Shown piece after piece: positions 38,132 through 50,749 of a DNA stretch of 64,000 bases. Both the position numbers and the translations under genes were made by a program. How positions within the stretch are numbered: position 1 is the stretch's first letter; every line of letters begins with the position of its first letter. The stretch comes from Phycisphaeraceae bacterium (GTDB taxonomy: Bacteria; Planctomycetota; Phycisphaerae; Phycisphaerales; Zrk34). The stretch is taken from NCBI GenBank assembly GCA_028282805.1, contig JANQHD010000010.1:124001-188000 (forward strand). Reading direction: 5' to 3'. The notes below the pieces were generated by a model. It saw only the letters and a program-made list of their open reading frames with translations. It did not search any database and had not been told where the DNA came from.

Positions 38132-38166
38132 GAATCCGGAATGCGGAATGCGGAATCCGGAATCAC
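38132..38166. repeat. Heptamer tandem array (GGAATSC) after queD
   Basis: Five units of GAATCCG/GAATGCG. The same array, again next to a family A palindrome, occurs at 48005-48037. Confidence 0.85.
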
Positions 38167-39431: not shown

Positions 39432-40847
39432 ATGAGAAAAGCAATCAACCTGTTGCAGGAATGGTCGATCCCGCTGATCGCCGGCGTGTTCGTGGCGCTG
39501 TTCGTGGCCAACACGAACCACAAGCTCTACGAAACGCTCGTCGAGACGCCGATCTACAAGCTGCCCCATGCGCTGGCCGAACTCGACAAGGCCGACGCCA
39601 AGCACAAGCCGGCCGAAGCGCCGCACGTGGAAAAGGATCAAGCTGTCGCGCCCGCCGACCACCCCCAACCCACCGCGCCCGTCACTCAAGACTCAAGCCT
39701 CAAGACTCAAGACTCAACCCACCACGCCGACGAAAAAGCCCACGCCGGCCACGACGACCACCACGGCCCGTGGTTCGACCACTACCTGACCCTGCACTTC
39801 CTCATCAACGACATCTTCATGGTGCTCTTCTTCGGCATCGCCGCCAAGGAGATCACCGAGTCGGTTTTGCCGGGCGGCGCGCTCAACCCGCCGAGCAAGG
39901 CCGTCAACCCACTGCTGGGCACCATCGGCGGCGTGGTCGGGCCCGTCGGCGCCTTCTTCGCGCTCAACTACTTCATGGGCGAGCCGATGTGGAACAAGGG
40001 CTGGGGCATCCCCACCGCCACCGACATCGCGCTGGCCTGGCTGGTCGCGCGCTTCGTGTTCGGCCAGGGGCACCCGGCGGTCAGCTTCCTGTTGCTGCTG
40101 GCCGTGGCCGACGACGCGATCGGCCTGGGCATCATCGCCTTCGGCTACCCCGACCCGACCAACCCCACCGAATGGGCCAACACCATCTGGATCCTGCCCG
40201 GCATGGCCATCGCCTGGTCGCTGCGCCGGCTGGGGGTGAAAAAGTGGTGGCCTTACATCCTGTTCGGCGGCATGCTGAGCTGGTGGGGCCTGAAGAGCGC
40301 GCACCTGCACCCGGCGTTGGCGTTGGTGCCGATCGTGCCGTTCCTGCCCGCCGCCCCGCGCGACCTGGGCATGTACGCCGAGGAAGCCGACTACGAAGAA
40401 CGCGAAGAGAAGGGACACGAGCACTCCACCCTCGAAAACTTCGAGCACGACCTCAAGGCCCTCGTCGACTTCGGCCTGTTCTTCTTCGCCTTCGCCAACG
40501 CCGGCGTCGGCTTCTCCACCATGAACAACCTGACCTGGGTCGTGTTCCTCAGCCTTTTGCTCGGCAAGATCGTCGGCATCACCGGACTCAGCTGGATCGG
40601 CACGAAGCTCGGCGCCCCCCTGCCGGTGGGCATGAAGACCAAGCACCTGTTCGTCGCCTCGATCATCGCGGGCATCGGTTTGACCGTCGCCCTTTTCGTC
40701 GCCGGCCAGGCCTTCCTCGGCCCCGGCGAGGTGCTCGCCCAAAACATGGCCGCCTCCAAGATGGGCGCCCTGTTCTCCGGCGGCATCTGCCTCATCGCCA
40801 TCGTCGCCGGCTACCTGCTCAAGGTGAAGGGCAACAACGGCAACTGA
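39432..40847 (+). CDS. nhaA: NhaA-family Na+/H+ antiporter, atypical
   Basis: Exchanges sodium for protons across the inner membrane. The NhaA signatures GIPTATDIALAWLVARF and VADDAIGLGIIAF (with the paired aspartates) are present, as is the first helix EWSIPLIAGVFVALFVANT. At 471 residues it is longer than the roughly 390-residue norm. An outer loop of about 75 residues after helix 1 is hydrophilic and ends in HADEKAHAGHDDHHGPWFDH; part of it (SSLKTQDST) is encoded by five CTCAAGA-type heptamers. A second charged loop near 320-345 is also expanded. A strong terminator follows. A CCACC/GGTGG hairpin lies in the short leader. Confidence 0.93.
   Translation: MRKAINLLQEWSIPLIAGVFVALFVANTNHKLYETLVETPIYKLPHALAELDKADAKHKPAEAPHVEKDQAVAPADHPQPTAPVTQDSSLKTQDSTHHADEKAHAGHDDHHGPWFDHYLTLHFLINDIFMVLFFGIAAKEITESVLPGGALNPPSKAVNPLLGTIGGVVGPVGAFFALNYFMGEPMWNKGWGIPTATDIALAWLVARFVFGQGHPAVSFLLLLAVADDAIGLGIIAFGYPDPTNPTEWANTIWILPGMAIAWSLRRLGVKKWWPYILFGGMLSWWGLKSAHLHPALALVPIVPFLPAAPRDLGMYAEEADYEEREEKGHEHSTLENFEHDLKALVDFGLFFFAFANAGVGFSTMNNLTWVVFLSLLLGKIVGITGLSWIGTKLGAPLPVGMKTKHLFVASIIAGIGLTVALFVAGQAFLGPGEVLAQNMAASKMGALFSGGICLIAIVAGYLLKVKGNNGN
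39684..39718. repeat. Heptamer array inside nhaA
   Basis: Five units of ACTCAAG with single variants, read in frame as part of a hydrophilic loop. Confidence 0.88.
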
Positions 40848-40869: not shown

Positions 40870-40902
40870 AAAGCCCACCCATGGCCATGGGTGGGCTTTT
40901 TT
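40870..40902 (+). terminator. Terminator after nhaA
   Basis: AAAGCCCACCCATGG pairs with its reverse complement, then TTTTTT. Confidence 0.93.
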
Positions 40903-40955
40903 GGTGAATTGGTGAATCAGTTAATTGGTCAACCGGTCGATTGGTCAATCGGTCA
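40901..40955. repeat. Left 8-base tandem array bounding the GIY-YIG cassette
   Basis: Units of ATTGGTCA/ATTGGTGA/ATCGGTCA. The array at 41917-41965 is its imperfect reverse complement, so the two are inverted flanks. Confidence 0.85.
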
Positions 40956-41029
40956 GCCATATCCGGCATGGCGCGTCATGCGCCGAATGCTACTGATCTG
41001 CTCGATGTCCCCTACTGACTGATTTGACC

Positions 41030-41845
41030 TCAGTTACGGTTATGTCCATGTGGTCGCGTCAGCAGGAGTTGTTTCCAGTGAGACTCGCGGGCGAGGATGT
41101 CTTGGCTGCTTGATCGTGTGTCAGCGGTTTCGAGGATGCCGTATTGGAAGTTGGCAGCGTAGTCGGAACCCTGCTCGTCGAGCAGAAGGCACAGCTCATG
41201 GTTGCCACCGTGGCTGGTCTGGGCGTAAGCACACCAACGGCCCCAGATGCCCTCGTCGCCCGTGGCGCTTCCGATGTAGAGCTTGCCGGTTTTTTGGTCG
41301 GCGATGATGTATACACCAGCAACACTAGACAGAGCACTTCTCCAAGAAGTGCTCTGTTGTTTGACAATCAGATCGAGTTGCTGTTTGGTGAGTAGCGTTT
41401 GAGTGTAGCCTGGGAATTCGGCAACCCGTATACGTTCGGCGCGAATCTCTGCGACTTGTAGCGAGGACTCCCATTGCTCGGCGTCGAGATAGGGTTGCCT
41501 GCCACGGCGTTCAAAGGCAACGATCAGCCGTCCGTCTAGCTCTTCTGATGCGATACGTCTGTCTAAGCGATAGCGATAACGAGTTTTTTGATCTACCCGA
41601 TCACAGCCTTGGACGGTGTAGACTCCGGCAAACAGCCATCGATTTCGGGTCAGCTTAATCAGGGAAATCACAAAGTCTCGTTTGAAGTTCTTCCTCGTCT
41701 GCCAAGACTGCCAGTCGTCGAACTCACCAGCAAGGTAAACATCGAGTGGGTTTTCACCATCGTCGTTAGTTGTAGCAAGATGAATTTTGCAGCGTTCAGG
41801 GAGTAACTCCTGGTCAAGTACCTGTATGAACTTGAAGAATTTCAT
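41030..41845 (-). CDS. GIY-YIG nuclease-domain protein
   Basis: A 271-residue protein with a C-terminal GIY-YIG domain: GVYI (177-180), LYIG (189-192), arginine R203 in WGRW, and likely metal-binding E254 in RESHWK, all spaced as in active enzymes. Residues 1-160 form an N-terminal domain I do not recognise (YLAGEFDDWQSWQTRKNFKR and a charged middle). Base composition is near even, far below the GC of both neighbours, suggesting recent gain. The gene sits alone between inverted tandem arrays. The start MKFFKF follows AGGGG by about seven bases; an ATG at 41860 is possible. A role in defence, repair or homing is unproven. Confidence 0.85.
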   Translation of the reverse strand: MKFFKFIQVLDQELLPERCKIHLATTNDDGENPLDVYLAGEFDDWQSWQTRKNFKRDFVISLIKLTRNRWLFAGVYTVQGCDRVDQKTRYRYRLDRRIASEELDGRLIVAFERRGRQPYLDAEQWESSLQVAEIRAERIRVAEFPGYTQTLLTKQQLDLIVKQQSTSWRSALSSVAGVYIIADQKTGKLYIGSATGDEGIWGRWCAYAQTSHGGNHELCLLLDEQGSDYAANFQYGILETADTRSSSQDILARESHWKQLLLTRPHGHNRN

Positions 41846-41916
41846 GTCAGAACCCCTCATCCAAAGGCAGAAACAAGTCCGTTCTAGCTGGGCGCGCCTC
41901 GAAGACTCGAAGCACC

Positions 41917-41965
41917 CGATTGACCGATCAACTGATTAACCGATCAACCAATTCACCAATCAACT
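41917..41965. repeat. Right 8-base tandem array bounding the GIY-YIG cassette
   Basis: Units of CGATCAAC/CAATTCAC, running up to the stop codon of the antiporter gene. Confidence 0.85.
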
Positions 41966-46708: not shown

Positions 46709-48004
46709 ATGCCCACCCTCACCATCACCAACGGACGCCTCATCGACCCCGCCAACGGCGTCGACACGAAAACCGACCTCGCCCTCGACAAGGGCAAGGT
46801 GGTCAAGGTCGGCAAGATCGCCAAGCCCGCCGGCAAGGTCTTCGACGCCGCCGGCTGCATCGTCACGCCCGGCCTGATCGACCCGCACGTGCACCTGCGC
46901 GAGCCCGGTCAGGAAGACAAGGAGACCATCGCCACCGGCTCGGCCGCGGCGGTCCACGGCGGGTTCACCACCGTCGTGTGCATGGCCAACACCTCCCCCG
47001 CCATCGACGACGACTCGCGCATCGAGTTCATCTACCGACAGGCCGAAGAAACCGCTTCGTGCCACGTCTACCCCACCGGCTGCGTGACCAAGGGCCGCCG
47101 CGGCGAAGAGCTGGCCGAGGTCGGCCTGATGAGCGAGGCGGGCGCCGTGGCGTTCACCGACGACGGCGACGCCATCGCCTCCGCCGCGATGATGCTCAAA
47201 GCCCTGGCCTACGTGAAGATGACCGGCAAGGTGCTCATGCAGCACTGCGAAGAGCCCGCGCTGACCGACGCCGGCGCCATGAACGCCGGCGCGCTGGCCA
47301 CGCGTCTCGGCCTCGCCGGCCGACCCGCCGTCGCTGAAGCCCTCGTCATCCAGCGCGACATCCTGCTCAACGAATCGGTCGGCTGCCGGTACCACGTGCA
47401 ACACCTGTCCAGCGCGCTCGGCGTCGACCTGATCCGCCGCGCCCGCAAGGCCGGCCAGCCCGTCACCACCGAGGTCAGCCCCCACCACCTGCTGCTCACC
47501 GAAGACGACTGCGCCACCTACGACTCGAACTACAAGATGAACCCCCCGCTCCGCACCAAGCGCGACGTCAAAGCCCTGCTCAAGGCGGTCAAGGACGGCG
47601 TGATCACCATCCTCGCCACCGACCACGCGCCCCACACCCGCGAAGAGAAAGAGGTCGGCTTCCCCAACGCCCCCTCCGGCATCCTCGGCCTCGACTGCGC
47701 GTTACCCCTCTACATCAAGGCGCTGATCGAAACCGACACCATCGACTGGCCCCGCCTCGTGGAGATGATGACCGTCCGCCCCGCCGAGCTGTGCAACCTC
47801 GACGCCAAAGGCCACCTCTCCCCCGGCGCCGACGCGGACGTGACGGTCATCGACCCGAAAGAGTCGTGGACCATCGACGTCAACGCTTTCGCGAGCAAAG
47901 CCCGCAACTGCCCCTTCCACGGCTGGTCTGTGAACGGGCGCGCCATCGCCACGATCGTCGCCGGCAAGGTGGCGCTCAACCGCGACAAATCACGCTTGAA
48001 GTAA
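46709..48004 (+). CDS. pyrC: Dihydroorotase
   Basis: Zinc amidohydrolase that cyclises carbamoyl aspartate in pyrimidine synthesis. Metal ligands are H59 and H61 in DPHVHLREPGQEDKET, later HHL in EVSPHHLLLTEDD, and the catalytic Asp in LATDHAPHTREEK. The active-site block NTSPAIDDDSRIEF and KMNPPLRTKRD agree. The product is 431 residues, the long class I form. A TATCCT hexamer nine bases before the ATG may give a near-leaderless mRNA. Other pyr genes are not nearby. Confidence 0.95.
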   Translation: MPTLTITNGRLIDPANGVDTKTDLALDKGKVVKVGKIAKPAGKVFDAAGCIVTPGLIDPHVHLREPGQEDKETIATGSAAAVHGGFTTVVCMANTSPAIDDDSRIEFIYRQAEETASCHVYPTGCVTKGRRGEELAEVGLMSEAGAVAFTDDGDAIASAAMMLKALAYVKMTGKVLMQHCEEPALTDAGAMNAGALATRLGLAGRPAVAEALVIQRDILLNESVGCRYHVQHLSSALGVDLIRRARKAGQPVTTEVSPHHLLLTEDDCATYDSNYKMNPPLRTKRDVKALLKAVKDGVITILATDHAPHTREEKEVGFPNAPSGILGLDCALPLYIKALIETDTIDWPRLVEMMTVRPAELCNLDAKGHLSPGADADVTVIDPKESWTIDVNAFASKARNCPFHGWSVNGRAIATIVAGKVALNRDKSRLK

Positions 48005-48037
48005 ATCCGGAATGCGGAATCCGGAATCCGGAATCAC
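48005..48037. repeat. Heptamer tandem array after pyrC
   Basis: ATCCGGA/ATGCGGA units, as at 38132-38166. Confidence 0.85.
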
Positions 48038-49974: not shown

Positions 49975-50010
49975 CAAGACTCAAAGCTCAAGACTCAAGA
50001 CTCAAGACTC
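49975..50010. repeat. Heptamer array (CTCAAGA)
   Basis: Five units ending near the DUF1963-like gene stop. Confidence 0.88.
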
Positions 50011-50630: not shown

Positions 50631-50720
50631 GGCGTGATCCCCGCTAAAGTTGGATAAGTGGGCGAGCCAGTCGGCCGTATCCTCAACCCACGCCCGCCCG
50701 CCGTCAAGAAACGGCCCCTC

Positions 50721-50749
50721 ACGACTCACGACTCAAGACTCAAGACTCG
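50721..50749. repeat. Heptamer array (CTCAAGA)
   Basis: Four units between the DUF1963-like and YbaK genes. Confidence 0.82.

What the first reader, a model, noticed from the sequence alone, without database searches (positions are those of the whole stretch)
40901..41965. AT-richer GIY-YIG gene bounded by inverted tandem-repeat arrays: possible mobile cassette
The gene has an intact GIY-YIG domain, an unknown N-terminal domain and a base composition unlike its neighbours. The 8-base arrays at 40901-40955 and 41917-41965 are reverse complements over about 48 bases and lie exactly at the ends of the terminator and the antiporter stop. This looks like an insertion unit whose ends are STRR-like repeats, perhaps one that uses the nuclease to spread or that arose by recombination between arrays.
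Basis: partly seen in the sequence, partly recalled or inferred. Interest (0 to 1): 0.8.

Follow-up and report, generated by a model that had tools for sequence, protein, structure and literature searches.

The report
Anti-phage gene inside dispersed inverted repeats
A foreign, probably anti-phage nuclease gene sits between two inverted arrays of an 8-base repeat, and those arrays turn out to be one copy of an apparently undescribed repeat element scattered about 30 times through this bacterium's genome, usually placed right at the ends of genes.

Summary
In detail: a low-GC gene (GC3 0.57 against 0.92-0.95 for its neighbours) lies between inverted arrays of GGTCAATC-type octamers. The reading changes in three ways. 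(1) The arrays are not private to this gene. About 30 dispersed elements of the form [octamers]> core <[octamers] occur in the genome, all pairs in this orientation, normally with cores of 7-51 bp. A few occur in sister genera; the rest of the order gave one weak hit. Arms abut, and often supply, the stop codons of flanking genes. (2) The protein matches PADLOC UzuA (Uzume anti-phage defence, E 5e-63). Its model has an I-TevI-like GIY-YIG domain and an N-terminal domain closest to modified-base readers, so it is probably a modification-dependent restriction nuclease, not a mover. (3) Its nearest relatives lack the arrays, and array-bearing sister genomes lack the gene. Weak remnants of a core and a split arm beside the gene suggest it entered an existing element between two convergent antiporter genes; the same-genus genome has neither gene nor arrays there. 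A second element carries a four-helix-bundle gene. I found no description of this repeat element; what spreads it is unknown.

The parts
39432..40847 (+). NhaA-type Na+/H+ antiporter gene, left neighbour
   Evidence: ORF list; homologues 63-66% identical in sister genomes; NhaA name from sequence inspection
40873..40902 (+). terminator-like hairpin GCCCACCCATGGCCATGGGTGGGC with T-run
   Evidence: read in the sequence
40903..40958 (+). left octamer arm, 7 units pointing inward; outer two units of GGTGAATC type
40959..40995 (-). probable worn core of type B (CAGATCAGTAGCATTCGGCGCATGAC on the minus strand)
   Evidence: p about 0.004 for two of three core variants, not significant for the third; core-only profile finds nothing, so weak
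40996..41029 (-). probable degenerate right-arm remnant, about 4 units, ending at the stop codon of the gene
   Evidence: p about 0.0025 against shuffles; opposite orientation scores 8 against 19
41030..41860 (-). UzuA-like gene: N-terminal reader-like domain (about residues 1-147) and C-terminal GIY-YIG domain (179-276); likely start at 41845
   Evidence: PADLOC UzuA E 5.1e-63; structure models and comparisons
41918..41965 (-). right octamer arm, 6 units pointing inward, abutting the next stop codon
41964..43301 (-). CPA2-type cation/proton antiporter gene, right neighbour
   Evidence: ORF list; same order of genes in sister genomes; name from sequence inspection

Best explanation
A single-gene anti-phage nuclease (UzuA family, predicted type IV: a modified-base reader joined to a GIY-YIG domain) was acquired horizontally and now lies inside a pre-existing dispersed repeat element that filled the gap between two convergent antiporter genes. 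The element belongs to a family of about 30 copies: inverted arms of GGTCAATC octamers around a short core. Shown: the dispersed family and its fixed orientation, the arms at stop codons, the foreign composition of the gene, its absence with the arrays from the same-genus genome, its family. Inferred: that the gene split the right arm (about 4 worn units and a worn core on one side, 6 intact units on the other), by insertion or by recombination between octamer arrays, and that the nuclease cuts modified phage DNA. The nuclease is cargo, not the mover. What spreads the gene-less elements is unknown; one core type carries a hairpin like the REPs beside a RAYT (Y1) transposase gene of this genome.
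For: About 30 gene-less elements with the same arms. Core and arm remnants between the left array and the gene. Both outer arms are placed as expected for one element between the two antiporter 3' ends. Neither gene nor arrays in G001. GC3 of the gene. UzuA match. I-TevI-like domain Z 10.8; N-terminal domain alone nearest to the CMoRE 5hmC sensor, Z 6.5, then YTH, EVE, ASCH. 29 nearest relatives without octamer arrays.
Against: The remnant p-values are modest and uncorrected, and a core-only profile does not find the core. No genome shows this element without the gene, so order of events is inferred. G001 is distant (NhaA 66% identical). Reader-domain Z values are below 8 and Foldseek alone gives no significant N-terminal match. 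Two adjacent elements would look much the same.
Confidence: 0.55

Rival explanations
1. Two independent elements flank the gene: a complete, partly worn one between the NhaA and UzuA 3' ends, and a half element after the second antiporter. The inverted pair is then the outer arms of two elements.
For: The worn arm ends exactly at the UzuA stop codon, as arms do elsewhere. Single arms exist in the genome.
Against: Needs an extra half element; one split element explains both outer arms at once.
Confidence: 0.22
2. The arms are ends of a gene-capturing cassette that moves as a unit with its interior.
For: A second gene fills the core of another element. Cores differ between elements and between genera while arms persist.
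Against: Only 2 of more than 20 paired elements hold a gene; 8 of 9 four-helix-bundle genes have no arrays; remnants suggest entry into an arm; no copy of either gene-bearing unit elsewhere.
Confidence: 0.15
3. The GIY-YIG nuclease is the enzyme that spreads the elements, and this locus is the autonomous copy.
For: A single nuclease gene with the same ends as many gene-less copies resembles the REP and RAYT layout.
Against: Sister genomes with the elements lack the gene. The nearest relatives of the protein have no octamer arrays. Family and fold indicate defence.
Confidence: 0.05

Closest known systems
Uzume (UzuA), anti-phage defence family in PADLOC
   Same: Matches the UzuA profile over residues 28-276 at E 5.1e-63.
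   Different: Lies between octamer arrays; in some relatives the gene follows helicase-like and HNH-like genes instead. The published Uzume paper was not readable here.
CMoRE (PD-T4-3), type IV GIY-YIG nuclease for 5hmC DNA (PMC12923530)
   Same: One protein with a GIY-YIG domain and a domain resembling the CMoRE sensor.
   Different: Domain order is reversed; about 10% identity; no activity shown.
REP and BIME elements with RAYT transposases (PMC3733652)
   Same: Dispersed intergenic palindromic repeats near gene 3' ends; one core type has a REP-like hairpin resembling those beside a RAYT gene.
   Different: The arms are tandem octamer arrays in fixed inverted order; half the cores lack the hairpin; no RAYT gene lies next to octamer arrays.
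MITEs
   Same: Short, dispersed, non-coding, inverted ends.
   Different: Arm length varies by whole octamers, no target duplication could be seen, no cognate transposase found.
STRRs (short tandem heptamer repeats, from memory)
   Same: Intergenic head-to-tail arrays of a short unit.
   Different: Here arrays come as oriented inverted pairs around a shared core.

Membership tests
Uzume (UzuA) | Match to the PADLOC UzuA profile over most of the protein | tested here: met
   PDLC03973 E 5.1e-63, residues 28-276 on profile 21-278
Uzume (UzuA) | Protection against phage | not testable with these tools
   needs plaque assays
GIY-YIG nuclease superfamily | Fold and catalytic residues of the domain | tested here: met
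   I-TevI Z 10.8, rmsd 2.1, 88 residues; G182, Y184, Y195, G197, R208 invariant and E259, N274 nearly so in 32 sequences; the Pfam score itself is under the cut-off
Type IV modification-dependent restriction nuclease | Modified-base reader domain | tested here: inconclusive
   CMoRE sensor Z 6.5, YTH, EVE and ASCH Z about 4-5, all modest; Foldseek not significant
Type IV modification-dependent restriction nuclease | Cleavage of modified DNA only | not testable with these tools
   needs enzyme assays
Homing endonuclease | Gene lies in an intron or splits its target; relatives at matching sites | tested here: inconclusive
   Between genes here; flanks of the relatives inspected differ, but no systematic site comparison was made
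REP with RAYT transposase | RAYT gene flanked by the same repeat | tested here: not met
   No octamer arrays within 1.5 kb of the five Y1 matches; only the type A core hairpin resembles hairpins beside one of them
MITE | Target site duplication and a transposase recognising the ends | tested here: inconclusive
   No close empty sites to compare; no transposase with these ends seen
Integron cassette | attC sites and an integron integrase | not tested
   No integrase search was made

The most novel reading that the evidence does not exclude
Inverted octamer arrays are the ends of a new kind of gene-capturing mobile element in this bacterial family: arms that settle at stop codons, tolerate interiors from a hairpin to a whole gene, and have picked up an anti-phage gene and a four-helix-bundle gene.
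Probability: 0.18. Interest if true: 0.8.

Novelty: new variant of a known kind. Interest (0 to 1): 0.55.

Why it matters
Single defence genes move often between bacteria, and how they enter a chromosome without an obvious mobile element is often unclear. Here one lies in a small dispersed repeat that sits at gene ends and so offers a harmless landing site. The repeat family itself (inverted octamer arms, fixed orientation, arms that supply stop codons) was not found in the literature searched and raises a clear question: what copies it?

Tried and rejected
Nuclease as mover: rejected on distribution. The two arms coevolving as one hairpin: own arms are not more complementary than arms taken from different elements (score per base 0.82 against 0.98). 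RAYT genes flanked by octamer arrays: none within 1.5 kb. Four-helix-bundle genes generally array-flanked: 1 of 9. A cassette-array reading of the palindromes around relative L066: they look like an ordinary REP family after ordinary genes. Relatives in viral contigs: none found with the single-protein query. The transition excess in the units (580 to 97) is partly built in by the scoring that found the arms, so it is not used as evidence.

Full report
1. Observation. The arrays lie where stated, 40903-40958 and 41918-41965, with units of 8 bp close to GGTCAATC in opposite orientation. They align over 45 bp with 10 mismatches. The left array begins at the T-run of a terminator-like hairpin after NhaA; the right array overlaps the stop codon of the next antiporter by 2 bases. 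The gene between them has G+C 0.526 and GC3 0.567, against GC3 0.919 and 0.951 for its neighbours, which is good evidence for recent acquisition.

2. The arrays are a dispersed element family. Searching the window's own genome with the locus gave 16 matches, all but one to the arrays. Pattern searches gave up to 115 and 140 overlapping matches on the two strands, some at contig ends, so the arrays break the assembly. Reading 34 such places showed a constant layout: octamers pointing inward, a short core, octamers pointing inward from the other side. All 23 scored pairs have this order and none the reverse. Core lengths run from 7 to 51 bp, most often 24, 43 or 51, with two exceptions: this locus (959) and C23 (439). 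Cores form related types: type B of about 24 bp, and type A, the same start followed by a hairpin GGCCCGCTGAAGCGGGCC. A covariance model gives 33 hits (about 25 places, some found on both strands) in this genome, 1 to 5 in each of five sister genomes, and one weak hit elsewhere in the order. In sister genomes the layout recurs with related units (GGTTAACT) and other cores.

3. Arms and stop codons. In 33 arms facing a gene's 3' end, the stop codon falls in one phase of the octamer in 16 (p 5e-7 against 1 in 8); in 10 it is the TGA of the outermost RG-TGA-ATC unit. GTGAA-type units are concentrated at outer ends: 25 of 59 outermost, 1 of 84 deep. Read inward, GGTCAATC arrays contain no stop codon in any frame; read outward they contain TGA in every frame within 24 nt (from the unit sequence). 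Outer GTGA units can therefore end neighbouring genes, and an ORF in a core is ended by the arm, as for the C23 gene. Whether this is insertion preference or later selection is not known.

4. This locus. In the only same-genus genome (G001, NhaA 66% identical) the two antiporter genes are adjacent and convergent, with a short gap and neither arrays nor gene. Between the left array and the gene there is a stretch resembling core B (p about 0.004 for two of three variants, 0.28 for the third) followed by about 4 degenerate octamers in right-arm direction (p about 0.0025) that end at the stop codon of the gene. The simplest reading is one element between the antiporters whose right arm was split by the gene. 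Two adjacent elements cannot be excluded.

5. The gene. Pfam gives a sub-threshold GIY-YIG match, NCBIfam a sub-threshold group I intron endonuclease match, PADLOC gives UzuA at E 5.1e-63. Relatives occur in 402 plasmid records, 3 phage records and 112 stretches of GTDB genomes, from Pseudomonas to Prevotella. In some relatives the gene follows a helicase-like and an HNH-like gene, recognised by eye. AlphaFold2 gives mean pLDDT 93. Residues 179-276 match I-TevI (Z 10.8, 88 residues, rmsd 2.1). The N-terminal domain modelled alone lists first the 5hmC sensor of CMoRE (Z 6.5, 100 residues, rmsd 3.3), then YTH, EVE and ASCH domains at Z about 5 to 4. Z under 8 is not proof and Foldseek alone gives nothing significant, but the list is consistent, and CMoRE is itself a GIY-YIG anti-phage nuclease with the domains in the other order (PMC12923530); EVE and GIY-YIG fusions are also described (PMC7641849). 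I predict a modification-dependent restriction nuclease.

6. Is the nuclease the mover? Probably not. Arrays occur in sister genomes without the gene. Of 29 nearest relatives tested, none has octamer arrays; two have other flanking inverted repeats. L065 and L066 sit near a different REP-like palindrome, which in L066's genome follows ordinary genes.

7. What spreads the elements? Unknown. Five Y1 (RAYT-type) matches exist. One, at C52:82936, has hairpins on both sides resembling the type A core. The type A hairpin occurs 17 times, 14 next to octamer arrays and 3 alone. REP-like spread is plausible for type A but does not explain type B or the arms.

8. A second gene-bearing element. At C23:22175-22709 a four-helix-bundle gene (TIGR02436, E 1e-27) fills the core, its stop in the left arm and its start close to the right arm. 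It is one of nine such genes; the other eight have no arrays nearby.

9. Verdict. Observation confirmed, interpretation partly right. The gene is cargo of a known family. The repeat element is the less ordinary part; I found no description of it in the papers searched, though that library is incomplete.

Noticed in passing
L028:976-1510 (G000:C23:22175-22709): A four-helix-bundle (TIGR02436) gene fills the core of another octamer element; its stop codon lies inside the arm.
   Followed up: partly
window 39684-39717, 49975-50010, 50718-50748, 38132-38164, 48004-48035: Heptamer tandem arrays (ACTCAAG and GAATCCG types), some inside genes such as the NhaA linker; a second kind of short tandem repeat in this genome.
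   Followed up: no
L061:840-1995 (G000:C52 near 82936): RAYT-type transposase gene with REP-like hairpins (CCCGCACCGCTNAAGCGGTGCTCGCC) on both sides.
   Followed up: partly
L023, L020, L044; L025, L032, L033: Contigs C11 and C53 both end in the sequence that starts C17, and C39 and C40 share a start that matches C26; arrays tangle the assembly or mark inversions or mixed populations.
   Followed up: no
L191 (G062:C13), L192 (G062:C50): REP-like palindrome CGCCTCCCCCGGGNNTCCGGGGGAGG, 33 matches in that genome, in runs of the same direction, also on both sides of the UzuA relative.
   Followed up: partly
L069, L071, L073, L090: Helicase-like and HNH-like genes directly upstream of UzuA relatives, possibly a larger defence locus.
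   Followed up: no
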